The notes under the pieces were generated by a model that ran no database searches, was not told the origin of the DNA, and saw nothing but the letters and a program-made list of their open reading frames with translations. A DNA stretch of 47,910 nucleotides, taken from the NCBI RefSeq assembly GCF_014197795.1, contig NZ_JACIGI010000027.1, positions 1-47,910 of the forward strand. The letters run 5' to 3'. Position 1 is the first letter of the stretch; every line of letters starts with the position of its first letter. Position numbers and translations under genes: made by a program. The DNA comes from Roseospira goensis (GTDB lineage: Bacteria; Pseudomonadota; Alphaproteobacteria; Rhodospirillales; Rhodospirillaceae). Shown here piece after piece: positions 9,451-35,060 of this stretch.

Positions 9451-10326
9451 TCAGGGGCGGGCCACGGCCCCCTCGATCGCGGCGGCGTCGGGCCGCCCCG
9501 CGAGCCGGCCCAGGTCGGCCACCACGCGGTCGGCCTGCGCCTTCGGCAGCAGGGACCGGGTGACCTGTTCCGCCAGGTCCATGCGGCCGGCGAGAGCATA
9601 GAGCAAGGCCAGGTTCTGGCGCATCTGCACGGTGGCGTCCGTGTGCTCGGCGGTCTTGCGTTGCAGCGTGATCGCCTCCCCAAGATCGCCCGTCAGGGCC
9701 AGCGACAGCGCCAGGTTGTTGGCGCTGCGCAGGTCCTCGGGATCGCCCGCCATGGCCGCGCGATAGGCGGCCTGAGCCTCTCGGTGGCGCCCGTCGCGAT
9801 CGGCCAGGATGCCCAGCAGGGCCTGGACGCGGGGATCGTTCGGCACCTCGGTCTCCAGCGTGACCATCTGGCTGCGCGCATCCTGGATCGCCCCCGCGGC
9901 CAGCAGGGCGCGGGCCAGTTCCAGGCGCACGGCCAGGGTCTCGGCGAGGCGGTCCTCGGCGATCGCGCGGCGCAACGTGCGGACGGCCTCCTGCGGCTGC
10001 CCGGAGTATCTCAGATTCCGGGCAAGGCCGAGAACATAGCTCTCGGTGTCGGGCGCCGCCTTGACGAGACGGCCGTACTGCTCGGCCGCCTGACCGTAGC
10101 GGTGCCGGGACTCGCTGGTGCGGGCCATCCGCTCGAGAGTGTCCAACAACACCGGATCCTGTGGGCCGGCCGCCGCCGGAGCCGCCGCGCCCCGCTCCGC
10201 CGTCGCGTCACGGGAGGCGCAGCCGCCCAACGCCAGGGCGGCGGCCACGATCACCACCCCGGCCGCGGCCGGAGCACGGGCCCGGCTGTGGCGCCGCGCC
10301 GCCCGGGTCGCGCCGACCTCACACAT
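9451..10326 (-). CDS. tadD: TPR lipoprotein of the Tad locus, TadD-like
   Basis: 291 residues with a long signal peptide and a lipobox ending at Cys36 (LALGGCASRD), so probably an outer-membrane-anchored periplasmic protein. The remainder is a row of tetratricopeptide-like helical repeats (for example SYVLGLARNLRYSGQPQEAVRTLRRAI, DLRSANNLALSLALTGDLGEAITLQRK, QNLALLYALAGRMDLAEQ). TadD in other Tad systems is a TPR pilotin-like protein needed for secretin assembly; the assignment rests on the TPR-lipoprotein architecture and the locus. The ATG overlaps the stop of the upstream regulator by 8 bases and follows a GAAGG site, so the two genes are translationally coupled. Confidence 0.8.
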   Translation of the reverse strand: MCEVGATRAARRHSRARAPAAAGVVIVAAALALGGCASRDATAERGAAAPAAAGPQDPVLLDTLERMARTSESRHRYGQAAEQYGRLVKAAPDTESYVLGLARNLRYSGQPQEAVRTLRRAIAEDRLAETLAVRLELARALLAAGAIQDARSQMVTLETEVPNDPRVQALLGILADRDGRHREAQAAYRAAMAGDPEDLRSANNLALSLALTGDLGEAITLQRKTAEHTDATVQMRQNLALLYALAGRMDLAEQVTRSLLPKAQADRVVADLGRLAGRPDAAAIEGAVARP

Positions 10327-11242
10327 GGGCCAACGCCTTCAGCCGGTTGGGGTCGCGGATCAGAAGGGCGCGATGCTGACGGACCACCACGCCCTCGCGC
10401 GCCAACCACCCGATGGCGGCCGCCACCGTCTCCCGCTTGGTGCCGGCCCAGAAGGCGATGTCGGCATGAGAGGGCAGCGGCTCGATGATCCATTCCGCCG
10501 GCCGGCGCGCGTTGACCTCGGCCAGCCGCGCGAGCTGGGCATAGACGCGCTGCTTCGCGGTCAGGGTCGAGAGGTTGTACATGCGGCGGTTGGAGGCACG
10601 CAGATAGCCGGCCACGCGCCGGAGCAGCGCGAGGGCCAGATCCCCGTGGTCGCGCACCAAGGCCACGAACGCCTCGCCGTCCAGGATGGCGACCAGGCTC
10701 GGTTCCAGGGCGACGGCGCGGGCCGACCGCATGCGGCCGTCGATGGCCGACAGCTCACCGAAGGTGTCGCCGGCCCCCAGCTCGGTGAGCGTCATCGGTA
10801 CGCCCTCGTCCACGAGCGCCTCGAACGCCAGATTGCCGGCCTTGATGCTTTCGGTCTCGGCGTCCACGTCGGAGGTGGCGGACCCGGTCCCGGTGCTGCC
10901 GCCCGGGCCGGTGCCGTTCGACGGCTGACCGCCCGACTCCGCCTCGGCCTCCGGATCCTGGGGACCCCGGAACACCAGGATGCGCAGCTTGCCGCGCACG
11001 ATGAAGTAGACGTCGCGACTCGGGTCGTCCTGATCGAACACCACGTCGTCTGTGGCAAGCTGACGCCAGCGGCAGGCGTCCTCCACCTGCTTGAGCACCG
11101 GCGGCGGCAGATTGCCCAGCAGGATGTTGCCGCCGAGCGAGGCCTCTTCCCCGGACTCCGGTCGCGAGGGCCGATCGAGGATCCGGCTCGCGCGCGGCGG
11201 GGCCGTGGCCACCCGATCCGGTCCGGCTCCGTCTGTGCCCAT
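10319..11242 (-). CDS. Crp/Fnr-family transcriptional regulator of the pilus locus
   Basis: 307 residues. A cyclic-nucleotide-binding beta-barrel (about 41-190) keeps the phosphate-binding cassette: FGEL at 161-164 and Arg172-Ser173 in MRSARAVA, equivalent to the cAMP-contacting Glu, Arg and Ser of E. coli CRP. A long C helix leads to a winged helix with recognition helix TKRETVAAAI (RETV at 270-273), the same R-E pair that reads TGTGA in CRP. Odd feature: a Gly/Ser/Thr- and acid-rich insertion of about 45 residues (roughly 95-146) replaces the beta4-beta5 hairpin. Start: ATG at 11242 has AGGAGGG at 7-base spacing; upstream extensions lack support. Overlaps tadD by 8 bases. See the four candidate sites at 13863, 16650, 27100 and 35045. 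Confidence 0.88.
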   Translation of the reverse strand: MGTDGAGPDRVATAPPRASRILDRPSRPESGEEASLGGNILLGNLPPPVLKQVEDACRWRQLATDDVVFDQDDPSRDVYFIVRGKLRILVFRGPQDPEAEAESGGQPSNGTGPGGSTGTGSATSDVDAETESIKAGNLAFEALVDEGVPMTLTELGAGDTFGELSAIDGRMRSARAVALEPSLVAILDGEAFVALVRDHGDLALALLRRVAGYLRASNRRMYNLSTLTAKQRVYAQLARLAEVNARRPAEWIIEPLPSHADIAFWAGTKRETVAAAIGWLAREGVVVRQHRALLIRDPNRLKALAHV

Positions 11243-11814
11243 TCCGTTTTCCCTCCTGGACATGGTGGGCGTCGTTCCCCGTGGCGGAGCCGGCGCCGGA
11301 GGTGTCACCGGCACGGGCGGGCGGGACCCCGTCCCGCTCGGCATCCTACCGCGCGTTCCCCTGGGGAGAACAGGGCCTGCCCTCGGCACGGGTCCGCGTC
11401 CTGAACCGGCGAACCGGTGCCGCCCTGCGGGACCTGCGCGGGAGGAACACTGGCCTCCCCCAGGGACTCGCCACATCACGACAAGACGACACCGGCCCCG
11501 CATCTTGCCGTTTCCTGAACACAGGACCGGAGGACCAGGACATCGGCGCGCGCGAGTCTTCCGGACCCGCTGTTGTCCGACCGTACAGGCGTCGCGGTCG
11601 GCCATCAACCATCGCCGTCGCCGAGATCCGCATGCGTGGCCCCGCCCGATCCGCCGACACCGCCCGGCTGCTTTTCCGCTGGATCGAACCGGCTGCGGCG
11701 GGCGAAAGTATGCGAAGGACACCCTCGTCCCGGCCGCGGGTCCGCGCGGCCACGCCGGAGACGGGCTGCACGACGCCGGACGAAACCGGACCGGCCAGAG
11801 CGGGAGGGCACGCC
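11243..11814. other. 572-base intergenic region between divergent regulator and PilZ genes
   Basis: No frame here has convincing coding character. It must hold the promoters of both the minus-strand Crp-type gene and the plus-strand PilZ gene. I find no TGTGA-N6-TCACA-like palindrome in it, so autoregulation through such a site is not indicated. The only firm elements are the AGGAGGG ribosome site of the regulator (about 11249-11257, minus strand) and the GGGAGGG site of the PilZ gene (11802-11808). Confidence 0.6.
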
Positions 11815-12329: not shown

Positions 12330-13793
12330 CTACTGGCTGACGCGCAGCCGGGACAGTTCGATGGCGATGGCGCGGAACGACGCCTTCAGGTCTTCCTGGG
12401 ACGGGCTGTCGAACCACTTGGCCGGATCCGAGGCGCAGTCCCGGTACAGGTCCTTGGTCGCCTGGTTGATGCTGGACGAGAACGTCACGGTGTAGACGAT
12501 GATGCCCTGCGCCTTGATGTCCTCGCAGGCCAGCGCCATGCGGGCATCGATGATGTCGTTGGCCGTGCTCTTGCTGTTGGTGCCGATCAGGGGATTGGAG
12601 GACGAGAGCCAGCCGATACCCGAGTAGTCTGAGTTGACCGACGGGTCCGGCTCATTGGGCGGCCATTTGTCCTTGTCCAGTCGATAGAACTGGTTCTCGC
12701 CATCGGTCATCATGACGATGGCCTTTTCCCAGCGCGGCTCGTCCCAGGCCTTGCCCTCGGTGAACGGGGCCTCGGGCGACAGCGCCCGCCGGCCCCAGGC
12801 CAGACCCAGGTCCGCCATGGTGCCGCCGCGGTGCCAGGCATCCAGCCCCCGGATGACGTCGACCAGATCCCCCTTCCTGTTGGTCAGCGGGATGATGGGC
12901 GACGGGCACCCCAGGTTCGGCCCCGTGCCGCTGTTCTGATAGGTGGTTGGGTTGTAGCGCACTGTCCCGGGCATGTCATCGGGGTCATAATCGTTCGCCG
13001 GACCGGACTCGTAGACGAACGGGGTCCAGCCGGTGGCGCTGTCGTCGCCCAGCAGGTCGGCCCCGGTGCGCTCCATCACGCAGCCCTTCCAGCCCTGCCC
13101 GGTGCCGTCGGCGGTCCACTCGAACGGCACGTAGTGGGGATCCCCGGGCTCCGGCCACCAGCTCGGGTCCGGCGGGTTGGTGGACCCACCCAGCGCCTCC
13201 GGCCCCGGATTGACCGACGCCGCATAGGGGACGATGGAAATGTACAGGTACGGATGCTCGGTCTCGTGGCCGAACAGAATGTCCACCATGTCCTCGGCGG
13301 CGATCCGCAGCGCGCCGATGTTGTTGCCGCCACGCATGGAGCCCGTGTTGTCGAGCACCATCGCCAACTCCAGGCCCTTGATCGACCGGATCACCTCGGC
13401 ATCGGCCGAGACCGTGATCCGATCCCACTGGAACAGCTTCAGGAAATGGGTGTCGAAGCTGGCCTTGGCCGCCACGGTCACAATGTCGTTGGTCACGGTG
13501 ACGGAAACATCGTGGACCCAGCCCATCACGCCAGCGGGGTAATTCGCGGCGATGAAGTCCCCGGCCCGCTCGGTGACGTCGACCGCGTCTTCGACAGTCG
13601 AGCCGACGGCGAGCGCCGCCGAATCCACGGCATGGCCGAGCCGGTTCTTGATGTAGTAGGCGATGCCGAAGTCGATGGCACCGCCCAGGGCCAGAAGCAG
13701 CGGAACCATCATGAGCGCGACCAGGAGGGCGGCGGCGCCGCGCCTATCGCGACGCAACTGCGCCAAACACCGACCAATGCTCACGCCAGTCAT
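12330..13793 (-). CDS. tadG: TadG-like pilus assembly protein with von Willebrand A domain (copy 1)
   Basis: 487 residues. The N terminus (RRDRRGAAALLVALMMVPLLLALGGAIDFG) is the TadE/TadG pseudopilin-like leader and membrane helix. A vWA domain starts near residue 141 with the MIDAS-type motif DNTGS (148-152; D-x-T-x-S form) and ends with MMTDGENQFY and a final strand. Probably inner-membrane-anchored with a large periplasmic domain. The C-terminal FRAIAIELSRLRVSQ is shared with the tandem copy just upstream, as are the Pro/Tyr-rich loops in between. The ATG at 13793 has a GGGAGAG site 7 bases before it; an extension to 13877 would run through a putative promoter and is rejected. Its own 246-base upstream region holds a Crp-like site. 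Confidence 0.88.
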   Translation of the reverse strand: MTGVSIGRCLAQLRRDRRGAAALLVALMMVPLLLALGGAIDFGIAYYIKNRLGHAVDSAALAVGSTVEDAVDVTERAGDFIAANYPAGVMGWVHDVSVTVTNDIVTVAAKASFDTHFLKLFQWDRITVSADAEVIRSIKGLELAMVLDNTGSMRGGNNIGALRIAAEDMVDILFGHETEHPYLYISIVPYAASVNPGPEALGGSTNPPDPSWWPEPGDPHYVPFEWTADGTGQGWKGCVMERTGADLLGDDSATGWTPFVYESGPANDYDPDDMPGTVRYNPTTYQNSGTGPNLGCPSPIIPLTNRKGDLVDVIRGLDAWHRGGTMADLGLAWGRRALSPEAPFTEGKAWDEPRWEKAIVMMTDGENQFYRLDKDKWPPNEPDPSVNSDYSGIGWLSSSNPLIGTNSKSTANDIIDARMALACEDIKAQGIIVYTVTFSSSINQATKDLYRDCASDPAKWFDSPSQEDLKASFRAIAIELSRLRVSQ

Positions 13794-13835
13794 GACAGCT
13801 CTCCCACTCGACGTGACGGGATCCGGAGCCTGACC

Positions 13836-13878
13836 AGCATAGACCCCGGCATCGCCGAGCGGTGTGACGACCCCCACA
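13836..13878 (-). promoter_or_regulatory. Candidate Crp-type site with -10 hexamer upstream of tadG copy 1
   Basis: TGTGACGACCCCCACA at 13863-13878 matches the CRP consensus TGTGA-N6-TCACA at 9 of 10 positions. On the minus strand a TATGCT hexamer (13836-13841) follows; the site centre (13870.5) is 34.5 bases from the downstream end of that hexamer, the class II CRP promoter distance. The predicted transcript start near 13829 leaves a leader of about 36 bases. Confidence 0.5.
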
Positions 13879-14039
13879 GTTCGAGTGCGAATATTGGAAA
13901 GCTCGCCTACGCGAGGCCTCCGACCGCATCAACGACCAGACTAGACCCGGCCATGCGCGAAAGGAACCGCCACGAATACGCCGAGAGCGATCCGCCCCGC
14001 GCCACCCGGCGCGACGACAGGTCCCCGCGGTCGGTCCGA

Positions 14040-15497
14040 TCAGCGGCTGATGCGCAGTTTCGACAATTCGATCGCGATGGCGCGGAAGTTGGCCTTCAGG
14101 TCCTCCGCCGAGGGGCTGTCGAACCACTTGGTGGGATCCGTGGCGCAGTCCCGGAACAGGGCCTTGGTGCCGCTGTCGAGAGGATTCGAGGGCGTGGCGA
14201 AGGTCACCGTGTAGACCAGGATGCCGTCCGCCTTGATGTCCTCGCAGACGTCCGCGAAGCGCCGGTCGACAACCCGCCTGGCCCAATAGGTGCTGCTGGT
14301 GCCGATGCGGGAGTTGCTGGACGACCGCACCCCGATGCCGGAATACACGCCGTTGAACTGGTTCATGCCGTCCGTCATGATGACGATGGCCTTTTCCCAG
14401 TCCTCGGTGTTCCAGGGCTTGCCCTCGGTGAACGGCGCTTCGGGCGACAGCACACGCCGGCCCCAGGCCATGCCGACGTCGGACATGGTACCCCCGTACC
14501 AATACTGCATGTCGCGGATGTAGGGCACCAGATCCGCCTTGGTGTCGGTCAGCGGCACGATGGGCGACGGACAGCCCCGGTTCGGCCCATAAGTCTTGTC
14601 GGAGCCATAGCCCCAGACCACGGGATTGTACCGAACCGTGTTCGGCATGTCGTACCACTCGTAATCATTGTTATAGTCAGTGTAACTATCGTCGGGCGGT
14701 GACGCATAGGGGATGAACCCGCCCGGATTGTCATCGCCCATCAGGTCGCTGCCGAAGCGCTCCTCGACGCAGCCCTTCCAGCCCAAACCGTCGGTCGAAT
14801 AGGGCTTGTACTCGAACGGAACGTACGCGTAGGGCCACCATGGGCGCCAGTACCCGGGCGGCGTCGGCTCCGGCCACCAGCTCGGCGGTGTCGGGCTGGT
14901 CGATCCGCCGAACGCCTCCGGCCCCGGGTTCACGGCCGTCACGTAGGGCACGATGGACACCCGCAGGTACGGATGAACGGTCTCGTCGCCGAACAGGATG
15001 TTGACCATGTCCTCGGCAGCCGTCCGCATGCTGCCCATCTTGCCGTGATACATCATCGACCCGGTGACGTCCAGGACCAGCGCCACCTCCAGGCCGCGGA
15101 TGTTGCGGACCACGACCGCGTCGGCACCCACTGTGATCTGGGGCCAGTGGAACAGGCGCAGGAAGAACGTATCGAAGGTCGCCTGGGCCGAGACGGTGAT
15201 CGTGTCCTTCACCTCGTTGACCTGGATGTCGTGCACCCACCCGATGGCGTCATCCGGGTAATTGGCGCGCACGAAGTCGGTCGCCCGGTCCGTAATGTCC
15301 ACGTTGTCGTCGATGGTGGAGCCGATGGCCAGGGCCGCCGAGTCCACGGCGTGCCCCAGTCGCGCCCTCAGGTAGTAGGCGATGCCGAAGTCGACCGCGC
15401 CCCCGATCGCCAGGAGCAGGGGAAGCAGCATCAACGCGACCATGAGCGCGGCGGCACCACGCCTATCGTCACGCAATCGAACCAGCAGGGAGATCAT
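14040..15497 (-). CDS. tadG: TadG-like pilus assembly protein with von Willebrand A domain (copy 2)
   Basis: 485 residues, clearly paralogous to the next gene: same RRGAAALMVALMLLPLLLAIGGAVDFG membrane segment, same HAVDSAALAIGSTI and GWVHDIQV strands, vWA motif DVTGS (143-147), MTDGMNQFN, and the end FRAIAIELSKLRISR. It is richer in Tyr/Pro/Trp in the 190-300 region (WWPEPTPPGYWRPWWPYAYVPFEY). TadG is thought to anchor or regulate the pilus at the envelope. Start ATG 15497 lies 17 bases after the tadF stop, so it is in the tadE-tadF transcript; its ribosome site is weak. Two tadG-like genes in a row, probably from tandem duplication. Confidence 0.88.
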   Translation of the reverse strand: MISLLVRLRDDRRGAAALMVALMLLPLLLAIGGAVDFGIAYYLRARLGHAVDSAALAIGSTIDDNVDITDRATDFVRANYPDDAIGWVHDIQVNEVKDTITVSAQATFDTFFLRLFHWPQITVGADAVVVRNIRGLEVALVLDVTGSMMYHGKMGSMRTAAEDMVNILFGDETVHPYLRVSIVPYVTAVNPGPEAFGGSTSPTPPSWWPEPTPPGYWRPWWPYAYVPFEYKPYSTDGLGWKGCVEERFGSDLMGDDNPGGFIPYASPPDDSYTDYNNDYEWYDMPNTVRYNPVVWGYGSDKTYGPNRGCPSPIVPLTDTKADLVPYIRDMQYWYGGTMSDVGMAWGRRVLSPEAPFTEGKPWNTEDWEKAIVIMTDGMNQFNGVYSGIGVRSSSNSRIGTSSTYWARRVVDRRFADVCEDIKADGILVYTVTFATPSNPLDSGTKALFRDCATDPTKWFDSPSAEDLKANFRAIAIELSKLRISR

Positions 15498-15514: not shown

Positions 15515-16045
15515 TCAGTGTTCGACGGACCCGTTCAGTGCAATCCGCCGGGCAACGCGCGGGCGGGCAAAGGCTTCCTCGGCCAGGTTCTTACTCTCGA
15601 AGATGAAGTCGAAAGGACTACTGTACGTGTAAGTCATGAGCACGACAACGACGCTTTCATTGGGCGACCCCAGGCCATTGCCCACGGCAGGATTGATGGC
15701 CGCGCCGCCCGCCGACTTGTCCTGCCACAGGATCCGTGTGTTGCCGCTCTGGTCGAACCCGACGCTGGCGATGGTGATCTGCAGCGTGTTGGAGTCCGTC
15801 GGCAGGGGATTCAGGATGATGTCCGCCGCCGCCCGAATGTCGGCCAGGGACTCGTCGTCGTGGGTCGCCTCCTGCGCCACCAGATCGGCGACCGTCTGGG
15901 TGGCGCTGACGGCCTTGCGGGTGGCCTCGATGAACATGGTGAGTTCGATCATCCCGAGAAACATGGTGATGAGAACCGGGATGACGAACGCCGTCTCGAT
16001 CGCGACCGATCCTTTGCGGCACCTCAGGAGCCTGCGGATCACCAT
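15515..16045 (-). CDS. tadF: TadF-type pseudopilin
   Basis: 176 residues. The N terminus RCRKGSVAIETAFVIPVLITMFLGMIELTMFI is a TadE/TadF class III signal: a short basic leader, small residue, E five residues later and a hydrophobic helix. The remainder is a soluble periplasmic domain with no recognised motif. Minor pseudopilins of this kind are cleaved by the CpaA/TadV peptidase and prime or tune fibre assembly. The start ATG overlaps the tadE stop (ATGGTGA), giving translational coupling; the next gene tadG copy 2 begins 17 bases after its stop. TadE versus TadF naming follows gene order only. Confidence 0.8.
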   Translation of the reverse strand: MVIRRLLRCRKGSVAIETAFVIPVLITMFLGMIELTMFIEATRKAVSATQTVADLVAQEATHDDESLADIRAAADIILNPLPTDSNTLQITIASVGFDQSGNTRILWQDKSAGGAAINPAVGNGLGSPNESVVVVLMTYTYSSPFDFIFESKNLAEEAFARPRVARRIALNGSVEH

Positions 16046-16569
16046 GGCTCCCCCTTCACCACCGCCGCATAGGCGATCAGGCGGCTGTCGTAGCCATCAT
16101 CATTGAAGAAGGCCCCGATGAGCGGTGTCGCGAAATGATAGCGCGCGTAGACCCGCGCGACGGTGATGTCGCCGGCATCACCCGGGGCGAAACTCGGAGA
16201 CTGCGGCAGACCGTCGCCGCCCAGTGTCGGCGGCGTCAGGTTGACCGAGCCGTAGTCCCCATAGTTGCGCACGTCGAAGACCAGATCGGCGCAGTCGAAC
16301 ATGAGCAGCCCGTCACCGCAGACCGCGTCCTCGAAGGTCTGGCGCGGATTGCCGGAGTTGAAGACCTGACCGGTGCGCAGTTGGCGGGCGCCCTCCTCCA
16401 GGGCGCCGTGCAGCGTCACGCTATGCAGCAGCATGATGCCGATCTCCAGGACCGCCGCCAGCATCAAGACCAGCGGCAGGGCGACGAGTCCAAACTCGAT
16501 CGCCACCGCCCCGCGGCGCGCGCGCCACAGACGGGAGACCAAATGATCCCTGCGGCGCTTTGTCGTCAC
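16039..16569 (-). CDS. tadE: TadE-type pseudopilin
   Basis: 176 residues beginning at GTG 16569, chosen because GGGAGG lies 7 bases before it; a longer frame to ATG 16638 has no ribosome site. The N terminus RRARRGAVAIEFGLVALPLVLMLAAVLEIGIMLL is a textbook TadE leader (cleavage after RRG, Glu near +5) and helix. The periplasmic part contains a pair of Cys (VCGDG, MFDCAD) that could form a disulfide. First gene of the tadE-tadF-tadG unit; a Crp-like site lies 81 bases upstream. Confidence 0.85.
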   Translation of the reverse strand: MTTKRRRDHLVSRLWRARRGAVAIEFGLVALPLVLMLAAVLEIGIMLLHSVTLHGALEEGARQLRTGQVFNSGNPRQTFEDAVCGDGLLMFDCADLVFDVRNYGDYGSVNLTPPTLGGDGLPQSPSFAPGDAGDITVARVYARYHFATPLIGAFFNDDGYDSRLIAYAAVVKGEPW

Positions 16570-16621
16570 GACAGGGCCTCCCAGGCGACAAGGCCGGCAC
16601 ACGTCCTGTGACCGGCGGACA

Positions 16622-16665
16622 ATGATGCCGCGTCCCATGTCGCCCTGTCAGTGACAAACATCACC
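16622..16665 (-). promoter_or_regulatory. Candidate Crp-type site with -10 hexamer upstream of tadE
   Basis: AGTGACAAACATCACC at 16650-16665 has a perfect GTGA-N6-TCAC core and 8 of 10 consensus positions. A CATCAT hexamer on the minus strand (16622-16627) ends 35.5 bases from the site centre, one base off the class II spacing seen at the other three sites. It lies in the 199-base gap between tadC and tadE. Confidence 0.4.
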
Positions 16666-16768: not shown

Positions 16769-17740
16769 CTATTGCAGTTCGGCCACCCGGATGGCGGCCG
16801 GCCCCAGGATCACGACCATGAGCACCGGCAGGAAGAACACGATCATCGGCACCGTCAGCTTGGCCGGCAGCGCCGCCGCCTTGCGCTCGGCCTTGGACAG
16901 ACGCTCGGCCCGGTTTTCCTGCGACAGGACCTTCAGGGCCTGACTGACCGACGTGCCGTATTTTTCCGCCTGCAACAGGGTGACCGTCAGGGACTTCGCG
17001 GCCGGCAGGCCGGTGCGATCGGCGAAGTTGGTGTACGCGCGTCGCCGGTCGCCCAGGAACGCCAGCTCGGCCGTGGTGAGGCCGAACTCTTCGGACAGGA
17101 CGGGCGAGACATCCTCGATCTCGTTGGTGACACGCTGGAACGCCGCCTCGATGGACAGCCCGGCCTCCGAACTGATGACCAGAAGGTCGAGCGCATCCGG
17201 AAACACCAGCTCCATTTCCTTGCGCCGCTTCTGGATGATGTTCACGAGCAGCAGGTGCGGCAGATAAAACCCGACCACGGGGGCCGCCGCGAGAACCAGG
17301 ACCTTCTGGAAGAAGATCAACTGATCCTCCAGGACCACCGTCACATACAGGAAGGTGGCCACAAGAAAGCCGATCAGCAGCAGCACGCGCAGACCGACAT
17401 AGACCTTGGGCGCGTAGGGCTGGCGGTAGCCGGCCTGGACCAGCTTCAGCTTGATCCCCTTGGGCGCGATCAGCCGTTCGAGCTTGAGGGCATCGACGAC
17501 GGCCTGCAGCAGGCTGACGCTCTTCTTGGGGCGCCAGCGGGCGCGCCGCTGCTGCTCGATCTCGGTACGCTGTTGCCGGCTGTACTCCTCGCGCGCCCGC
17601 GAGATGCTGCGCAGACGCGCGGCGCGATGGTCGCGTTGCAGGAACGGCAGGGCCATCGCCAGCACGGTCGCGAACGCGCCGATGAACGCCAGGGCGCTGA
17701 TGATCATCTCGACCCGGAAGCCCAGGAAGGTCGCTTCCAT
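16769..17740 (-). CDS. tadC: Type II/IV secretion platform protein TadC
   Basis: 323 residues, inner-membrane platform protein of the Tad system. An N-terminal membrane helix (IISALAFIGAFATVLAMALPFL) is followed by a basic cytoplasmic stretch, two helices near residues 120-160 (VLLLIGFLVATFLYVTVV, VLVLAAAPVVGFYLPHLLL), a T2SSF domain (FPDALDLLVISSEAGLSIEAAFQRV...) and a C-terminal helix (VPMIVFFLPVLMVVILGPAAI). Pairs with TadB to couple the CpaF ATPase to pilin polymerisation. Starts 12 bases after the tadB stop. Confidence 0.92.
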   Translation of the reverse strand: MEATFLGFRVEMIISALAFIGAFATVLAMALPFLQRDHRAARLRSISRAREEYSRQQRTEIEQQRRARWRPKKSVSLLQAVVDALKLERLIAPKGIKLKLVQAGYRQPYAPKVYVGLRVLLLIGFLVATFLYVTVVLEDQLIFFQKVLVLAAAPVVGFYLPHLLLVNIIQKRRKEMELVFPDALDLLVISSEAGLSIEAAFQRVTNEIEDVSPVLSEEFGLTTAELAFLGDRRRAYTNFADRTGLPAAKSLTVTLLQAEKYGTSVSQALKVLSQENRAERLSKAERKAAALPAKLTVPMIVFFLPVLMVVILGPAAIRVAELQ

Positions 17741-17752
17741 GACGGCGCATCC

Positions 17753-18805
17753 CTACATCTTGAAGTTGATCATCTTCGCCATGATGGCCACGCCCGTGGC
17801 CATCCAGAGCAGACCGCCCACCATGATGATGTGTCCGGCCGCGGTCTCGAACAGCGGGACCAGATAGGTCGGACTGGTCAGCGAGATCAGCGCGACGACG
17901 ATGAACGGCAGCGAGCCGATGATCCAGGCCGACGCCTTGGCCTCGGACGACAGCGCCTTGACCTTCAACCGCATCTGCTTGCGCTCGCGGATGACGGTCG
18001 ACAGGTTCGCCAGGGTCTCCGCAAGGTTGCCGCCGGTCTGCTGCTGGATCTGCAGGACGATGGCGAAAAACTTGTACTCCGGCGTCGGCATGCGTTCGAG
18101 ACCGCGCGCCATGATCTCCGACAGCGGCAGGCCGACGCGCTGACCCTCCACCATCATGCGGAACTCGGCGCCGACCGGATCGGGCACCTCGCGTCCGACG
18201 ATGCCGATGCACTCGCTGACCGGAAGGCCGGACTGGACGCCGCGCACCAGCACATCAATGGCGTTGGGGAACTCGGTGGTGAACCGCTTCTGGCGCCGGC
18301 GGGCCATGAAGCCCAGCACCAGCCGCGGCAGTCCGAACGCCACGGTGATCCCCGCCAGCAGGCCGATCAGCGGGTTGAAGCCGGCCACGATCACGAACAC
18401 GGCAGCGGCGGCGCCGATCACCACCGTCACCAGCAGGTAGAGCCGGTAATCCATGCGCAGGCCGGCGCGCAGCAGGGTCTGGCGGACGCGGTTGCTCCGC
18501 CGGGTGCGGTTCTCCTTGTCCTTCTCCAGCTCGCGCAGCTTCTCCTGGATGCGCTTCTGCCGGGTCTGCGTCTCGCCGCTGCCCCCGGACACGCTGCCGC
18601 CGGGGCGCAGACCGCGCACAGCGCGACCGGACCCACCGGCCCCGGCCGGAGCCAGGCCAAGCCCGTCCATCCGCCGGCGCAGCCGCCGGCGCGGCTCGGT
18701 CACCGCATAGGCCACGCCGCCGGCGATTGCCAGTACCATGACGAACAGGGCGAGCGCGATGCCGGCCACCAGCATCGTCTCGGGGCTGAGCGGTCCGTTA
18801 ATCAC
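17753..18805 (-). CDS. tadB: Type II/IV secretion platform protein TadB
   Basis: 350 residues. An N-terminal helix (TMLVAGIALALFVMVLAIAGGVAYAV) precedes a basic, coiled-coil-like linker (QKRIQEKLRELEKDKENRTRR, about 83-103), then two helices, the T2SSF domain (FPNAIDVLVRGVQSGLPVSECIGIV) and a C-terminal hairpin of helices. Heteromeric partner of TadC. The GTG start at 18805 overlaps the cpaF stop by 8 bases and has GGAGAAGG upstream, so translation is coupled to the ATPase gene. Confidence 0.92.
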   Translation of the reverse strand: MINGPLSPETMLVAGIALALFVMVLAIAGGVAYAVTEPRRRLRRRMDGLGLAPAGAGGSGRAVRGLRPGGSVSGGSGETQTRQKRIQEKLRELEKDKENRTRRSNRVRQTLLRAGLRMDYRLYLLVTVVIGAAAAVFVIVAGFNPLIGLLAGITVAFGLPRLVLGFMARRRQKRFTTEFPNAIDVLVRGVQSGLPVSECIGIVGREVPDPVGAEFRMMVEGQRVGLPLSEIMARGLERMPTPEYKFFAIVLQIQQQTGGNLAETLANLSTVIRERKQMRLKVKALSSEAKASAWIIGSLPFIVVALISLTSPTYLVPLFETAAGHIIMVGGLLWMATGVAIMAKMINFKM

Positions 18806-20282: not shown

Positions 20283-20508
20283 GGTTGACTCCTCATGCAG
20301 GCCCGGGCCGATCAGCCGAACGCGCCGGCGCTCCGGACCCGCACCCTGTGCCGGGCGCCTGCCCTGCGCCCCGCCTGGCCCTGCGGCTGCCGCGACGGGC
20401 GCGGCGCCGCGTCACGCCGCAGCAGACGATGATACCAAAGCACTCCGGCCGCACGAAAGGTGCCCGTGCTTGGCCTGGACGCTGCCCCGACGTCCCCGAG
20501 TCGCGTCA

Positions 20509-21729: not shown

Positions 21730-21821
21730 GTCACCCCAATCCTCGCCAACACCCTCATGCCGTCTTGTCCACGCATCCGGTCACCGTCGCCCGGGCCGGC
21801 GCGCCCTTTTCGCCGACCGCG

Positions 21822-22544: not shown

Positions 22545-22552
22545 GACGCTCC

Positions 22553-24559: not shown

Positions 24560-24663
24560 GACTGACCATCCTCCAGCAGGGTCTCAACGCAAGCCAAAAA
24601 AACTCGCCAGCTCCGTATGTTGCACCAAGTTTCTTCGTTTGTACATGAGAAACGGGAGTCAAA

Positions 24664-25902
24664 TCACTCTTCGATGGGAATCTCGTCCATCATCTCGGGC
24701 GTGATGCCGATGGGCGGACCGACATCATCCGGGCTCGCCGGTGCCCCGGGCGGACCCGACCGGCCGACCGGCGCCGCCCCCGACGGGGAGACGGTCCCGG
24801 ACTCGCCCGCCGAGACCGTCACGCCCTGATCCAGCCCCTCGTAGACCGTCGGCTCCCCAGCCCCGCCGCGATAGACGGTCACGGTCCAGGCGGGCCCCTC
24901 CTCCACCGGCTCGGGGGGCGGCGGCTCGACCACCGGCGGCGCCATCACGGGTTCCGGTTCCTGGGCCTGCTCCCGGGCCAACTCGCGCAACTCGCGCTGC
25001 CGCTCCGCCTCGGCGGCGGCCCGCAGCAGCATGTCCAGTCCACCGCTGACGCTGCGGTCGGTGACAAGCTGGCGCTCGCGCTCGCGGGCCGGTCCGCCCA
25101 GTCCCAGCAGGGACGCCAGCCCCACCGGTCCCTGGCGATCGCTCAGCGCCCGCAGGGTCAGCGTCAGGCTGCCCATCTGGCGGGCGAGGTTGACGATCTC
25201 AGCCTCGGCGGCCGAGACCTCCACGGTCACGGTATCCACGAGCTGGGCCTCGTCGTCCTCACCCCGGATCTCCTGGTCCACCGCCAGCACGCGCAGGGAC
25301 TCCAGGATGGTCTCCGAAACGTAGCGGGCGACCGGCGCGTTCACGCCGGGTCCGGAGGCACCGCGCGGCATGGCGGCCTGAAGGTCGTGCGTCAGAACGA
25401 TGTCCACGCGGTCGCCGGGCAGGATGAAGCCGGCGGCCCCGCTGGCCTCGTTCACCGGGATGGAGATCGCGCGCATGCCGGGCTCCAGCGCGCCCGCCAT
25501 GAAGCTGGCGTTGGCGCGGTCGAACACGGTGCGGTCGGTGATCGGCTCGCCGGCGGCGATGAAGCGGCGGGTGATCTTGCCGCTCATCTCCTCCTCGAAG
25601 CGGGTGCGCTGATTGAAAATCTGGCGCTCGGTCAGGCCCTCGGTCTCGCCGATCACCTTGTAGACCGACAGGATGTCCTCCTCCGGCCAGGGCTGCCACC
25701 GGAACATCGACCCGCGCAGGGGAACCCCGGCCTCGATGTCCTCGTCGGCCACCAGCACGCGCTGGCCCGTGAACACCGGCAACACCGGCTCCTCTTCGGT
25801 GGTCTGCTGGCGCTGCTGGGCCAGGTAACTGTTGACGAGGTAAGCCGCGCCCCCCGCCGCGGCCACGGCGATGGCGATGACCAGCAACAGAACCGCACGC
25901 AT
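24664..25902 (-). CDS. cpaB: Tad pilus assembly protein CpaB/RcpC
   Basis: 412 residues. An N-terminal membrane anchor (VLLLVIAIAVAAAGGAAYLV) precedes a SAF/AFP-like domain (VLVADEDIEAGVPLRGSMFRWQPWP) and the RcpC/CpaB core (MRAISIPVNEASGAAGFILPGDRVDIVLTHD, a strongly conserved signature). The C-terminal third carries a Pro/Glu-rich linker (APPVVEPPPPEPVEE) and a short WTVTVYRGG end. The family is periplasmic, and its SAF domain is proposed to bind peptidoglycan or stabilise the secretin. ATG with AAGGAGC upstream. Lies 73 bases after cpaA. Confidence 0.92.
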   Translation of the reverse strand: MRAVLLLVIAIAVAAAGGAAYLVNSYLAQQRQQTTEEEPVLPVFTGQRVLVADEDIEAGVPLRGSMFRWQPWPEEDILSVYKVIGETEGLTERQIFNQRTRFEEEMSGKITRRFIAAGEPITDRTVFDRANASFMAGALEPGMRAISIPVNEASGAAGFILPGDRVDIVLTHDLQAAMPRGASGPGVNAPVARYVSETILESLRVLAVDQEIRGEDDEAQLVDTVTVEVSAAEAEIVNLARQMGSLTLTLRALSDRQGPVGLASLLGLGGPARERERQLVTDRSVSGGLDMLLRAAAEAERQRELRELAREQAQEPEPVMAPPVVEPPPPEPVEEGPAWTVTVYRGGAGEPTVYEGLDQGVTVSAGESGTVSPSGAAPVGRSGPPGAPASPDDVGPPIGITPEMMDEIPIEE

Positions 25903-25975
25903 GATCCGAGGCTCCTTCCCCTCCAGGGCGGGGCGCGTCGCGACGGCTTCGCGGGCCGGGGCCGGACCGGATCGG

Positions 25976-26515
25976 TCAGCCGGGCGCCGGACCGATCGGC
26001 AGCCCCAGCGCCCCGGTCAGCCACGCCGCCAGGGTGCCGAGCGCAATCGCGAGTCCATAGGGCACAGTGTGCCAGCTTTCTTGATCATTGGTAAAGCAAG
26101 CCGCTACAAACGTCTGTTTTTCAAAAATTTTCACGGGTGTTATCCGAAGAGCCAAGAGGGCCAGCGACAGTAGGCCACCGGCGACCACAATGATAACAAG
26201 TATCTCCGGAAGGGCGCCCGGCCTGATCCACAGCCCGACCGCGGTCAGCAGCTTCACGTCCCCGCCGCCCAGCATGCCGACGGCGAACAGGACCGTGCCC
26301 GCGACGAACACGGCCAGCGCGCCGGCCGCCATCCAGCCGACATCGGCGAGGCTTGCGGCCCCAAGGCCGACGGCAAGTGCCGCAACGGGCACGAACAGAG
26401 CCGCCACCGCGACCGAGAAGCCGTTCGCGATGTGGCGGCTGGCGACATCCTGAAGCGCGGCGGCGGCCGTCAGCAGCACCACGGCGGCCCCGGCCCAGGT
26501 CATGAGGATAGACAT
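25976..26515 (-). CDS. cpaA: Flp prepilin peptidase CpaA/TadV
   Basis: 179 residues, type A24 aspartic peptidase with about six membrane helices. The catalytic aspartates are Asp23 (LQDVASRHIANG) and Asp86 in the GxGD motif (GGGDVKLL). It removes the leader of Flp and probably of TadE/TadF. Start at ATG 26515; an extension to 26575 lacks a ribosome site. A cytoplasmic loop (ITPVKIFEKQTFVAACFTNDQESWH, coded around 26065-26145) is far richer in A+T than its surroundings and does not look like the short basic loop I expect there. Confidence 0.9.
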   Translation of the reverse strand: MSILMTWAGAAVVLLTAAAALQDVASRHIANGFSVAVAALFVPVAALAVGLGAASLADVGWMAAGALAVFVAGTVLFAVGMLGGGDVKLLTAVGLWIRPGALPEILVIIVVAGGLLSLALLALRITPVKIFEKQTFVAACFTNDQESWHTVPYGLAIALGTLAAWLTGALGLPIGPAPG

Positions 26516-26632
26516 GACGTCCCGTCGTGATACCGATGGGCCATGACCCGGACGCAGCCGTTTACAGGCCGGCATGCCACCCGAACCGGGGAGGTGGGAG
26601 CGATCATGGCCCCACGCCGCCCCCGAAACACA

Positions 26633-26763: not shown

Positions 26764-26955
26764 TTAGGAGGGCGTCTGGCTGGCGAGGTTCGACGCGATG
26801 CCCTCGAACAGATCACTGATGTTGTTGCCCAGCACGCTCGCGCCGGCAATGATAGCGAGAGCGATCAGCGCCGCCAGCAGGCCGTATTCGATCGCCGTCG
26901 CGCCCTTTTCGTCGCGGCCGAGGGCCGTCAGGACATGCTTGATGATGGTGAACAT
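26764..26955 (-). CDS. flp: Major Flp pilin
   Basis: 63 residues. The type IVb leader of about 18 residues ends EKG, then mature ATAIEYGLLAALIALAIIAGASVLG: Glu at +5 and Tyr at +6 are the Flp hallmarks. The mature pilin is about 45 residues with a short polar tail. A strong GGAGGAG site lies before the ATG at 26955; the frame extends further upstream but without homology. It is the first gene of the Tad locus, with its own promoter region and terminator, as expected for a highly expressed fibre subunit. Confidence 0.95.
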   Translation of the reverse strand: MFTIIKHVLTALGRDEKGATAIEYGLLAALIALAIIAGASVLGNNISDLFEGIASNLASQTPS

Positions 26956-27494
26956 GGGTTCTCCTCCTTGCTCGGCGCCGCGCGGGCGCGTCCAGGTACC
27001 GATCGCACAGACTGCTGTGTCCGAAGCTTCCGTCACCACGCGAGGCCTGTCTCCAACGGCCTCATGCGGAGTATGATACGCGAGGCATGCAGTGTCCACT
27101 GTGACAGCCGTTACATCTCCGGCCACGTTCCGACCACTTTCCGGCCCGTGAGACTTGGTGTTCGTCGCTGGCCGCCTGAGACACGACTGTATCGGATACT
27201 GCCGATCACGCCCGCTCGCGACGCCTCTATATCACCTGTCCAGGGGCTGTACTCCGTTTTGGGTATACCGTACCCCACGCCACTTAACATCACGTTACTG
27301 GACTCGAGTCGCACAACGGCCTATCATTGTCTGCATGTGTTGCCAATTCGCAACGGACGACGCGCCTTTCGGGTAGGCGACTCGGGCGCGGCGACCCCGG
27401 CCACCCGCCCGAGGCCCTGATGTCGACGATCTCAACAGGCCCGTCCCCACGGCGTCGGGGATTGCGTGTTCTTCCGACAGCGCCACCGTGCCCC
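26956..27494. other. 539-base noncoding region upstream of flp
   Basis: No credible gene. Beyond the promoter elements at 27073-27115 the stretch 27116-27350 is noticeably richer in A+T than its neighbours and holds several inverted repeats: GTATC-G-GATAC (27189-27199), GGTATACC (27262-27269) and a TTAA-N7-TTAC box at 27284-27298 resembling the CtrA full site TTAA-N7-TTAA with one mismatch. It separates flp from the 3' end of the methyltransferase gene, both on the minus strand. Confidence 0.5.
27073..27115 (-). promoter_or_regulatory. Candidate Crp-type site and -10 hexamer of flp
   Basis: TGTGACAGCCGTTACA at 27100-27115 matches TGTGA-N6-TCACA at 9 of 10 positions. A TATCAT hexamer (27073-27078, minus strand) ends exactly 34.5 bases from the site centre, the class II CRP geometry. 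Between them lies a second inverted repeat, CAGTG-TC-CACTG (27090-27101). An alternative unregulated reading, TGGACA-N17-CATACT (27098-27070), is also possible. The predicted leader is about 110 bases. Confidence 0.5.
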
Positions 27495-31080: not shown

Positions 31081-31260
31081 TCACCAGTTGGAAACCTCGT
31101 TCGAGGCCGCTTCGAACACACCGGTCAGATTGTTCCCAAAAGCGACCAGCCCAACCAGCATGCCGATCCCGATCAGGGCCGCAAGCAGACCGTATTCGAC
31201 AACCGTGGCCCCCAGCGTATCGCGCCGGATCGACCGCAGGACAGCGAACGCACGTTTCAT
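31081..31260 (-). CDS. flp: Second Flp-family pilin
   Basis: 59 residues. The leader MKRAFAVLRSIRRDTLG is followed by mature ATVVEYGLLAALIGIGMLVGLVAFGNN: Glu +5 and Tyr +6 are present and the core EYGLLAALI is identical to the major pilin. The mature part is about 42 residues and ends in Trp. AAGGGGA lies 6 bases before the ATG. It stands 4 kb from the main pilus locus, first in a run with the GT-C-like gene, and there is no terminator between them. It could be a minor pilin, an alternative fibre subunit or a modification substrate. Confidence 0.9.
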   Translation of the reverse strand: MKRAFAVLRSIRRDTLGATVVEYGLLAALIGIGMLVGLVAFGNNLTGVFEAASNEVSNW

Positions 31261-32955: not shown

Positions 32956-33042
32956 GCTTGCGCCCGTTTCCTACGGTCCGGCACGCCGCCCGGCCCGGCA
33001 TCCCGACCGGGCGGACGACGGGCGGGACTCTCCCGCCGCGGC

Positions 33043-33048
33043 AGTATA
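33043..33048 (-). promoter_or_regulatory. Possible -10 element of the HerA-like gene
   Basis: TATACT on the minus strand, 88 bases before the HerA-like start codon. The hexamer 17 bases upstream (CTGTCG) matches the -35 consensus only at 3 of 6 positions, so this is a weak call. Confidence 0.3.
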
Positions 33049-33112
33049 CCGGAACCGTGCGGGGCCGACAGCCTTTCCAGTCCGGAGCGGACCGCCGAGA
33101 CCACCGATGCGG

Positions 33113-33925
33113 TCAGCGACCGGTGGTCGGCTGCGCCGGGGTCTCGTCCAGGCGCCGCCGCAACTCGTCGATCATGTAGGTCAGCAGCGCCCGCCGCAGG
33201 ACGTTCTGCTGTGTGGTGGCGCACACCTTGGCGAACTGGCGCAGCAACTCGTGTTCGCGAGCGGGCAGCCGGACGCTGACGTGCCGGCGGCGCGACGCCG
33301 CCTCGCCCGCCCCCACCTCGTCCTCGCCCACCGTCCCCGGCGGCCGCTCCGGCCCGAACAGATACACCTCAAGGTCACCGGGTTCCTCGGCCGGGGCCGC
33401 CGCCAGGGTCTGGCGCAAGCCATCGGCGCGTCCGGACAGCCGCACCCAGGGTGGCACCGGCCCCGGGCCGAAGCGGCCGCGCGCCGCCGGCACCGCCGCC
33501 GCGCCGCGCCGTGTCGCGGCCGGTTCGGGGCGGGCCGCCGACGACCGTCCGCCGCCCTCGGCCGCCTCGCGCCGGCGGGACAGCGCCTCGCGCAGGTGAT
33601 GCCACGGGCGCGTCGGCCCGTCCGCGACCGGCTCGACCGGCTGCCCGCTCCCGCCCTGCCCTGGGGCCGGCTCCGGCCGCGGCGTCTGGGTCGTCGCCAC
33701 CACGTGAGGACGCGGGAACGGCATCACCCGCCGGTCCGGCGCGGGCCCGTGGGCGGCCGGGGCGTCCCCGCCCTCCGGTTCCGCCTCGGGCGCCGCGCTC
33801 GCCCCCAGGGTCCGCGCCAGATCCTCGAACCGGCTGCGGCCGGAGGACGGAATCGCGGCCTGCACGGCCGGCGCCGCCTCGCCCTTGCGGGAGAACAGCG
33901 CATCCAGTCCGAACACCGCGCTCAT
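33113..33925 (-). CDS. Ribbon-helix-helix protein paired with ParA
   Basis: 270 residues. The first 200 are Pro/Arg/Ala/Glu-rich and probably disordered, apart from a hydrophobic N-terminal helix (SAVFGLDALFSRKG). The last 62 form a ribbon-helix-helix: strand HVSVRLP, helix A AREHELLRQFAKVCA, turn TTQQN, helix B VLRRALLTYMIDELRRRL. RHH dimers bind DNA through the strand; here the conserved small beta residues V, V and L alternate as expected. The ATG shares ATGA with the parA stop, so the two are coupled, as in type Ib partition operons. The long N-terminal extension is unlike the usual short ParG-type proteins. Confidence 0.7.
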   Translation of the reverse strand: MSAVFGLDALFSRKGEAAPAVQAAIPSSGRSRFEDLARTLGASAAPEAEPEGGDAPAAHGPAPDRRVMPFPRPHVVATTQTPRPEPAPGQGGSGQPVEPVADGPTRPWHHLREALSRRREAAEGGGRSSAARPEPAATRRGAAAVPAARGRFGPGPVPPWVRLSGRADGLRQTLAAAPAEEPGDLEVYLFGPERPPGTVGEDEVGAGEAASRRRHVSVRLPAREHELLRQFAKVCATTQQNVLRRALLTYMIDELRRRLDETPAQPTTGR

Positions 33926-34920
33926 GACGAGGCCTCCACGATCCCGCGCCGCCCGAAGGCATGGCGCGTCCCGCCGCCGACGCGACCCTGGGCCGGGCTG
34001 GGCCGCACCCCACGCGCCGGATAGGTCGGCGCCGGGGTTCGTGCGGCCAGGGTCCGGGCGTCCCGGCTGGCGGACGCCGCGACGGTCCCGGGCTCCGCGA
34101 TCCGGTCGTCCGTCTCAGACGGTTCGTCGGTGGCCTCGCGCACCACCGCAGGCGCGGCGACCGCCGGCACGATCGACGCCGCCGGGATCCCGGTCTGCTG
34201 CGCCAGCACCGCAGCGCGCGGCGGCGGCTGATAGGACTCGCGCACGAAGTCGGAGAACGCCGCACCGTGGCGCGGTCCGGCCGGTTCGGCCTGGCGGGCG
34301 GCCCGATCCAGCCGATCCTGAAGATAGTCCCACAACGCGAGCATTTCGGCCGCCGAGGGACCGTCCGCGTTGACCTCCATGACGGTGCGGCCGTCGCTCA
34401 TGCTGGCCGCGTAGTCGACCCGGTTCTGCACCGTGACGGGGGCGACCGTGCCGTGCTGGCTGAGGGCCACCGCGGCGTCGGCGGTGATGCGCGCGCGGGC
34501 GGTGGCGGCATTGACGACGAACACGAACGGGCGCGCCAGGCCCTCGACCAGATCCACCGTGGCACCGGCGGCGCGCAGGTCGTGGGGACTCGGCCGCACC
34601 GGCACCACCACCAGGTCGGCGTTCTCGACCACGCTGCGGATGGCGATGGTGATGGCCGGCGGCGTGTCGATGACCACCAGCCGGATGCCGCGCCGCTCCA
34701 GCTCGGCCAGCGTCTCCGGCAGCTCGGTGAGCGACGAACGCACGAACAGCGGCGTCTCGGCGCGGCGCGCGTTCCACCACTGCGCCAGGCTGCCCTGGGG
34801 GTCGGTATCGAGCATCGCCACCGGCCCCAGGCCGAGGGTATCGGCCCGCACGGCCATGTGACCGGCCAGCGTGGTCTTGCCGGAGCCGCCCTTCTGCGAC
34901 GCGAATACGATGACCTGCAT
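33922..34920 (-). CDS. parA: ParA-family ATPase
   Basis: 332 residues. Deviant Walker A SQKGGSGKTT (8-17, both signature Lys10 and Lys15), A' motif MLDTDPQGSLAQWW (Asp38, Asp40) and Walker B LVVIDTPPA (Asp85) show an active ParA/MinD-type switch ATPase; the PQGSLAQWW form resembles short plasmid ParA and VirC1 proteins. From about residue 215 the protein becomes Pro/Ala/Arg-rich and likely disordered. ATG 34920 is fixed by the start of homology, with AGGA upstream. Stop overlaps the RHH gene. Symbol indicates family only; the normal chromosomal parAB-parS set is not here. A Crp-like site sits in its promoter. Confidence 0.82.
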   Translation of the reverse strand: MQVIVFASQKGGSGKTTLAGHMAVRADTLGLGPVAMLDTDPQGSLAQWWNARRAETPLFVRSSLTELPETLAELERRGIRLVVIDTPPAITIAIRSVVENADLVVVPVRPSPHDLRAAGATVDLVEGLARPFVFVVNAATARARITADAAVALSQHGTVAPVTVQNRVDYAASMSDGRTVMEVNADGPSAAEMLALWDYLQDRLDRAARQAEPAGPRHGAAFSDFVRESYQPPPRAAVLAQQTGIPAASIVPAVAAPAVVREATDEPSETDDRIAEPGTVAASASRDARTLAARTPAPTYPARGVRPSPAQGRVGGGTRHAFGRRGIVEASS

Positions 34921-35017
34921 GGCGCGACGTCCTTTCCTGGCACCGCCGAGGACACGTCGCGGCCCGCCGCGTCGCGCCCGCCGGCCGACGACGACCCGCC
35001 GCACGGGTCCACGAGTC

Positions 35018-35060
35018 AGGCTAGGGCGGCGCCATGCCGGCGGCAGTGACTCCAGTCACA
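35018..35060 (-). promoter_or_regulatory. Candidate Crp-type site and -10 hexamer upstream of parA
   Basis: AGTGACTCCAGTCACA at 35045-35060 matches TGTGA-N6-TCACA at 9 of 10 positions and contains a perfect GTGACT-CC-AGTCAC inverted repeat. A TAGCCT hexamer (35018-35023, minus strand) ends 34.5 bases from the site centre, the same distance as at flp and tadG copy 1. The predicted leader before parA is about 90 bases. Confidence 0.55.

What the first reader, a model, noticed from the sequence alone, without database searches (positions are those of the whole stretch)
10319..35060. Crp-type regulator with four class II-spaced palindromes forming a candidate pilus/ParA regulon
Seen: TGTGA-N6-TCACA-like palindromes at 13863-13878 (9/10), 16650-16665 (8/10), 27100-27115 (9/10) and 35045-35060 (9/10). 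They precede tadG copy 1, tadE, flp and parA. Each is followed on the minus strand by a -10-like hexamer (TATGCT, CATCAT, TATCAT, TAGCCT) whose downstream end lies 34.5, 35.5, 34.5 and 34.5 bases from the palindrome centre. Known: class II CRP promoters are centred at -41.5, which equals 34.5 bases to the end of the -10. The regulator in the locus has an intact phosphate-binding cassette and the RETV recognition helix that reads TGTGA. Inference: this protein, or another CRP homologue in the genome, activates all four units.
Basis: partly seen in the sequence, partly recalled or inferred. Interest (0 to 1): 0.78.

Follow-up and report, generated by a model that had tools for sequence, protein, structure and literature searches.

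The report
Pilus locus with own CRP-type activator
A gene cluster for sticky surface pili in a relative of purple bacteria carries its own cyclic-nucleotide-type switch protein, and the DNA signs such a protein reads, placed where an activator should sit, recur at the same pilus genes in many related bacteria.

Summary
The four palindromes and their -10 spacings are as described. Palindromes alone are unremarkable in the window (7 seen, 9.4 expected). Palindrome plus -10 at 34.5/35.5 bases is not: 4 seen, 0.4 expected, 0 of 200 simulations. Three of the four (flp, tadE, parA) are conserved at the same genes in the three congeners where all three genes were found; half-sites are 88-96% identical, flanks 30-35%. 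The fourth (tadG copy 2) cannot be tested. The Tad-linked CRP belongs to an order-wide clade; 57 of 70 newly fetched neighbourhoods hold flp or core tad genes. There 38 of 60 flp promoters carry the palindrome, nine control palindromes 0-2 of 60, and TANNNT peaks at the class II offset. Sixteen of 22 genomes of one family without a match to the two nearest paralogues have it, which favours the Tad-linked CRP as reader. A pre-stated residue test gave only p = 0.11. Binding, activation and ligand are untested. Best reading: a dedicated, probably cyclic-nucleotide-responsive class II activator of Tad pili and a neighbouring ParA.

The parts
10322..11242 (-). Tad-linked CRP-family regulator (Tad-CRP), cNMP-binding domain plus HTH_Crp_2; start codon inferred
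   Evidence: Pfam PF00027 and PF13545; clade B in tree; phosphate-binding cassette and helix
9451..10326 (-). TPR protein, TadD-like (name inferred), overlapping the end of the CRP gene
   Evidence: Pfam TPR; beside the CRP gene in relatives
12330..13794 (-). tadG copy 2 (start at MTGVSI inferred)
   Evidence: Pfam Tad/TadE-like; G002, G003 and G005 have one tadG in this cluster
13863..13878 (-). CRP-type palindrome before tadG copy 2; left half imperfect on the minus strand (TGTGG)
   Evidence: no orthologous promoter to test
13836..13841 (-). -10 hexamer TATGCT at offset 21
14040..15497 (-). tadG copy 1
   Evidence: translation; orthologues in relatives
15515..16045 (-). tadF-like (name by position)
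16039..16638 (-). tadE (ORF; true start must lie downstream of the predicted promoter)
   Evidence: Pfam TadE
16650..16665 (-). CRP-type palindrome before tadE
   Evidence: conserved at <=2 mismatches in G002, G003, G005 and G056; in G056 its TANNNT faces the other way, towards a tadD-like gene
16622..16627 (-). -10 hexamer CATCAT at offset 22 (TACCAT at the same offset in G003)
16769..26575 (-). tadC, tadB, cpaF, cpaE, cpaD, cpaC, cpaB, cpaA (CpaD by Pfam, the others named from sequence and order)
   Evidence: translations, CpaD by Pfam, orthologues
26764..26955 (-). flp major pilin (ATG inferred)
   Evidence: Pfam Flp_Fap
27100..27115 (-). CRP-type palindrome before flp
   Evidence: <=1 mismatch in 5 of 5 congeners with a tad cluster and in many genomes of the order
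27073..27078 (-). -10 hexamer TATCAT at offset 21
33922..34920 (-). ParA-type ATPase (start MQVIV inferred)
   Evidence: AAA_31; ParA partition family below the NCBIfam cut-off; orthologues
33113..33925 (-). partner gene with a C-terminal ribbon-helix-helix-like stretch (label by eye, no Pfam hit)
   Evidence: no family; follows parA in G002, G003, G005, G006
35045..35060 (-). CRP-type palindrome before parA
   Evidence: <=1 mismatch in G002, G003, G005, 2 mismatches in G025, where parA is on another contig than cpaB
35018..35023 (-). -10 hexamer TAGCCT at offset 21

Best explanation
The locus encodes a Tad pilus together with its own CRP-family transcription activator (Tad-CRP). When loaded with a cyclic nucleotide (cAMP or cGMP, unknown which), the dimer most likely binds WGTGAY-N4-RTCACW palindromes overlapping the -35 position of the flp, tadE and parA promoters. 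It would recruit RNA polymerase as a class II activator, centred about 41.5 bases before the start. Pilin, the tadEFG pseudopilin genes and a neighbouring ParA would thus be switched on together. The tadG copy 2 promoter may be a fourth, species-specific target. Shown by computation: site positions, spacing, conservation, the tad-linked clade, and an intact phosphate-binding cassette. Inferred: binding by this protein, activation rather than repression, the ligand, and the transcription starts.
For: Conserved sites in otherwise diverged promoters (half-site identity 0.88-0.96, flank 0.30-0.35). In a hand-picked list of 27 promoter sites, 15 have TANNNT exactly 21 bases downstream and 3 at 22; no other offset exceeds 2. 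The unselected replicate: around all 71 sites at <=1 mismatch in 70 new neighbourhoods TANNNT counts are 31 at offset 21 and 11 at 22, at most 7 elsewhere. 38 of 60 flp promoters have the site, nine control palindromes 0-2 of 60. Composite hits genome-wide: G003 3 of 3 and G005 3 of 4 in the tad/parA locus. cpaB and the clade-B CRP gene occur in the same 10 of 25 genomes at the cut-offs used. 16 of 22 genomes of family f22 with clade B but no clade A or C match at E <= 1e-45 have the flp site. R82 and A84 in 87 of 87 clade-B proteins, E72 in 86 of 87.
Against: Clade B keeps R185 in only 4 of 87 members, while the sister clade A keeps R180, E181 and R185 in 35 of 35. Sites also occur at flp in two genomes without clade B (G009, G052), and at parA in G025, whose clade-B protein has K at 180. 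My pre-stated R180 test failed at neighbourhood level (28 of 51 against 6 of 19, p = 0.11). 12 of 41 R180 genomes with a flp show no site there. Two of six permuted palindromes were also frequent in the 70 neighbourhoods as a whole (40 and 47 against 71), though not at flp promoters. More distant CRP/FNR proteins were not excluded. I have no expression or binding data.
Confidence: 0.66

Rival explanations
1. The palindromes are read by the order-wide sister regulator (clade A; genome copy at C6:68583-69254, which lies near two class III cyclase domains), and the Tad-linked CRP does something else.
For: Clade A keeps R180/E181/R185 in 35 of 35. Genomes with clade A but no clade B match are rich in the same composite site (G060 13 hits, G040 15, controls 0-2). 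Two genomes without clade B, G009 and G052, have flp sites. R. centenum CgrA, cGMP-linked, footprints on TGTGA-N6-TCACA (PMC4681086, passages); whether clade A is CgrA was not tested by sequence.
Against: 16 of 22 f22 genomes without a clade A or C match have flp sites. No <=2-mismatch site lies within 700 bases upstream of the clade-A gene in the four genus genomes scanned, G000, G002, G003 and G005. In four genus genomes most composite hits are in the tad/parA locus, an odd regulon for a global factor.
Confidence: 0.2
2. Both paralogues bind the same sites, so that Tad pili integrate two cyclic-nucleotide signals or the Tad-CRP competes with the global regulator.
For: Clades A and B are sister groups; flp sites occur in genomes with A only, B only and both.
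Against: No direct evidence; needs both proteins to tolerate the same motif despite different helices.
Confidence: 0.15
3. The sites are repressor or autoregulatory operators, or chance palindromes, not class II activator sites.
For: A palindrome over the -35 region can also block polymerase; <=2-mismatch palindromes alone are at background in the window.
Against: 21/22 spacing over dozens of promoters; -10 hexamers often far from TATAAT, as expected of activator-dependent promoters (judgement); control palindromes near zero at flp.
Confidence: 0.07

Closest known systems
E. coli CRP (CAP) at class II promoters
   Same: Domains, phosphate-binding cassette, TGTGA-N6-TCACA-type palindrome and centre-to--10 spacing
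   Different: R185 replaced; apparently one locus instead of a global regulon; the 52-58 loop (AR3, sigma contact; PMC6603298, passages) is 53-75 residues in the genus instead of 7
Rhodospirillum centenum CgrA (cGMP-linked CRP, cyst development)
   Same: Same palindrome by footprint (PMC4681086, passages); alphaproteobacterial (recalled)
   Different: CgrA controls many genes; the word search of that paper's main text found no 'pili' and one 'tad' word start, which I take to be an author name in the reference list. Its sequence was not compared here. Clade A resembles it by nearby cyclase domains, clade B does not
Sinorhizobium meliloti Clr (cluster G, cAMP/cGMP)
   Same: CRP superfamily, divergent recognition helix, activation from class I and II positions (PMC10127613, passages)
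   Different: Different DNA motif (recalled) and regulon; tad linkage not examined

Membership tests
CRP/FNR superfamily | cNMP-binding domain plus Crp-type HTH | tested here: met
   PF00027 53.8 bits, PF13545 39.3 bits, both above cut-off
CRP/FNR superfamily | cyclic-nucleotide phosphate-binding cassette (G71, E72, R82, S83, A84) | tested here: met
   present in the window protein; 85-87 of 87 clade-B rows at each position
CRP/FNR superfamily | binds and is switched by cAMP or cGMP | not testable with these tools
   no assay; 7 class III cyclase domains in the genome make a ligand plausible
Crp main cluster (RE(T/M)VGR recognition helix, PMC10127613) | R180, E181 and R185 | tested here: not met
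   RETVAAA in the window protein; R185 kept in 4 of 87 clade-B proteins
Class II CRP-dependent promoter | site centred about 41.5 before the start (recalled), over the -35 region | tested here: met
   by sequence only: -10 at offset 21/22; transcription starts not mapped
CgrA orthologue | groups with CgrA and its cyclase operon | tested here: inconclusive
   the Tad-CRP falls outside clade A, whose copy here lies near cyclase domains; the CgrA sequence itself was not compared
Tad/Flp pilus locus | flp, cpaA-F, tadBCEFG, tadD | tested here: met
   several names rest on sequence and gene order

The most novel reading that the evidence does not exclude
Across the order (Rhodospirillales by recall) a dedicated CRP paralogue, usually encoded near flp or other tad genes, couples a cyclic-nucleotide second messenger directly to Tad pilin transcription through class II sites; tandem flp copies often carry a site each. 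In the window's genus the regulator also controls an adjacent ParA system and has grown a 53-75 residue, acidic and disordered-looking loop (by eye) exactly at its sigma-contact surface.
Probability: 0.53. Interest if true: 0.65.

Novelty: new member of a known kind. Interest (0 to 1): 0.52.

Why it matters
Tad pili drive surface attachment, and their transcriptional control outside a few model species is little known (recalled). A locus-encoded CRP paralogue with a compact regulon conserved over an order would give a direct cyclic-nucleotide-to-adhesion switch. It would also be a clean system for asking how a CRP paralogue that lost R185 still reads the same palindrome. My searches of an open-access library (the top rows of each listing seen) showed no report of a CRP-family regulator of tad genes; subscription papers were not covered.

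Tried and rejected
Rejected: palindrome counts alone as evidence (at background at <=2 mismatches). tadG copy 2 as a supported target (no orthologous promoter). The 27-site table is hand-picked. Left out of it: a G025 hit between flp and cpaB (L025 4446; it does have TANNNT at 21 but reads as cpaA coding sequence by eye); a tadE-like hit in G025 (L025 13294) and one in G001 (L020 13164), both shown; a G050 hit 366 bases before flp without a -10 at the offset; and weaker 2-mismatch hits of G009, G038 and G050. Structure prediction of the Tad-CRP with four sequences gave mean pLDDT 46 and was not used.

At neighbourhood level it was not significant (R 28 of 51, non-R 6 of 19, p = 0.11). A flp-level version defined afterwards gave R 29 of 41, non-R 0 of 6, p = 0.0017 per genome and p = 0.087 per genus (lists typed). 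I treat it as weak. In one search the three-letter residue column is misnumbered; searches use the corrected position. Counting 87 clade-B genes rests on a score gap (271 bits and above against 254 and below) in the capped listing, not on a tree of all 87. The tree used 63 rows after dropping 12 duplicate or off-target hits of 75; its clade B has 18 rows, one of which (G017, no flp match) is not among the 87.
Full report
OBSERVATION. By palindrome alone the window is ordinary: 7 matches at <=2 mismatches, 9.4 expected. At <=1 mismatch there are 3 against 0.62, reached in 1 of 100 shuffles and 6 of 200 Markov simulations. With a -10-like hexamer at offset 21 or 22 added, 4 are seen against 0.41, with 0 of 200 simulations reaching 4. 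In the whole 4.18 Mb assembly 18 places match at <=1 mismatch (reversed control 9); three are these. Of the other 15 (fetched, open frames) several lie inside long open frames and one perfect palindrome (C28:25173) lies between two genes.

SETTING. The minus-strand cluster runs flp, cpaA-F, tadB, tadC, tadE, tadF, tadG, tadG copy 2, the CRP-like gene and tadD (several names rest on sequence and order). Upstream lie HerA, an RHH-like gene and parA. Contigs of identical length point to G002 as Rhodospira trueperi, G001 as Roseospira visakhapatnamensis and G003 as an uncultured Rhodospira. The window is a congener by the tool's label.

CONSERVATION. flp: all 5 congeners with a tad cluster (G001, G002, G003, G005, G006) have a palindrome with <=1 mismatch upstream. 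tadE: 3 of 3 congeners in which I located it (G002, G003, G005; <=2 mismatches). parA: 3 of 3 congeners whose upstream region is held (<=1 mismatch), and also G025 (2 mismatches), another genus where parA sits on a different contig from cpaB. In G006 the parA upstream is beyond the contig end; G001 has no parA match at the cut-off; G004 has no match to cpaB, parA or the Tad-CRP. Anchored on the site, half-site identity among four species is 0.94 (flp), 0.88 (tadE) and 0.96 (parA), with flanks of 0.35, 0.30 and 0.34.

SPACING. In 27 hand-picked sites at flp, tadE, parA, cpaA-side and tadG2 promoters, TANNNT occurs at offset 21 in 15, at 22 in 3, at 23 in 2 and at any other offset in at most 1 (what was left out is told under Tried and rejected). 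The unselected replicate is below. This is the class II geometry.

REGULON. A composite pattern (GTNAY-N4-RTCAC, then TANNNT at 21/22) was searched genome-wide. It was drawn from these sites, so hits at them are partly built in; what counts is the rest of the genome. G003: 3 hits, all tadE, flp, parA. G005: 4 hits, three of them these. G000: 3 hits, flp, parA and C28:25174. G002: 3 hits, flp, parA and one other. G001: 2 hits and G006: 4 hits, none in the tad locus (their flp sites are not followed by TANNNT at 21/22; G006 has CATGAT). G004: 2 weak hits elsewhere. G025: 7 hits, two of them at parA. G035: 1 hit elsewhere. Controls in these nine genomes are 0-1 per strand. Outside the family several genomes have far more hits (G060 13, G040 15, G038 13, controls 0-2), so some CRP with this motif acts broadly there.

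WHICH PROTEIN. A tree of 63 CRP proteins has two sister groups: clade B (18 rows, Tad-CRP) and clade A (35 rows). A third clade C holds the genome's copy at C16. Clade B genes sit with tad genes in G035, G056, G038, G037 and G057, and cpaB and clade B occur in the same 10 of 25 genomes at the cut-offs used. The window's genome has all three paralogues, so the motif alone cannot decide. Of six clade-B-less flp regions read (G009, G041, G045, G051, G052, G060), two (G009, G052) have a site, so clade A can probably serve. I then searched 318 genomes of the order and fetched all 70 new clade-B neighbourhoods in its listing (70 of 70 hold the gene). 57 of 70 hold flp or core tad genes. In 1,036,765 bases there are 71 palindromes at <=1 mismatch; six permuted palindromes give 3, 5, 40, 2, 47 and 21. 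TANNNT is at offset 21 in 31 and at 22 in 11, at most 7 elsewhere. Of 60 flp domains with enough upstream sequence (47 genomes), 38 have the site within 450 bases, 23 with TANNNT at 21-23; nine control palindromes give 0-2 and 0. Of 22 f22 genomes whose only match is clade B and whose flp was in the stretch, 16 have the flp site; three of these are assemblies of one or two contigs (G181, G185, G186). There the Tad-CRP is the only candidate of this A/B/C group at E <= 1e-45. Tandem flp copies carry sites of their own at a fixed distance: G192 2 of 2, G188 2 of 3, G146 3 of 3 (the last without TANNNT at 21-23 in the flp direction). Against: my pre-stated R180 test was not significant at neighbourhood level (p = 0.11), and the later flp-level version (p = 0.0017 per genome, 0.087 per genus) is post hoc.

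PROTEIN. The phosphate-binding cassette is intact, so a cyclic nucleotide ligand is likely; the T127/S128 positions differ from E. coli (mostly L, sometimes S or M; and D, N or T), so cAMP against cGMP is open. R180 is kept in 64 of 87, R185 in 4 of 87 (clade A: 35 of 35 for both). In the genus (53-75 residues) and G035 (28) only, the loop at E. coli residues 52-58 is expanded; it is 6-11 in the other 80. Residues 52-55 and 58 are AR3, the sigma contact (PMC6603298, passages). The seven class III cyclase domains of the genome could supply ligand; two lie within about 7 kb of the clade-A gene.

DISTRIBUTION AND LITERATURE. In 385 genomes spread over the class, clade-B-level scores (270 bits or more) outside the order appear in 5 genomes. 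Library searches (PubMed Central open licences only, top rows of the listings seen) showed no CRP-family regulator of tad genes. Papers opened, by passages only: PMC4681086, PMC10127613, PMC10934763, PMC6603298, PMC12531629.

VERDICT. Direct action of the Tad-CRP is likely, not shown.

Noticed in passing
31099-31224 (-): A second Flp/Fap pilin domain lies between the glycosyltransferase gene and HerA; G002, G003 and G005 have a second one near flp too. None of the sites found lies shortly before it.
   Followed up: no
31369-34920 (-): HerA, an RHH-like gene and ParA stay next to the tad cluster in G002, G003 and G005; in G025 parA is on another contig yet keeps its palindrome. ParA may position the pilus machine (guess).
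   Followed up: partly
12330-15497 (-): tadG is duplicated here but single in the clusters of G002, G003 and G005; the second copy has its own class II-like promoter.
   Followed up: partly
G000:C28:25173 (L033 1501-1516): The only perfect TGTGA-N6-TCACA in the assembly lies between a LOG-like gene and an inorganic pyrophosphatase-like gene (labels by eye) with no evident target downstream of its TANNNT.
   Followed up: partly
G000:C6:61924-69254: The clade-A CRP gene lies near two class III cyclase domains, recalling the gcyB-gcyC-cgrA cluster of R. centenum.
   Followed up: partly
L172, L173 (flp upstream of G041, G051): Two genomes without a clade-B match share a different flp-upstream palindrome, AGATAAAATTTTATCT.
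   Followed up: no
genomes G038, G040, G045, G058, G060: Nine to fifteen composite class II CRP sites per genome with controls of 0-2: a broad CRP regulon in these families whose targets I did not read.
   Followed up: no
flp promoters: In one search the flp sites lie 135-363 bases before the Flp domain, so flp transcripts would have long leaders (about 110 bases in the window, from the inferred start and ATG).
   Followed up: no
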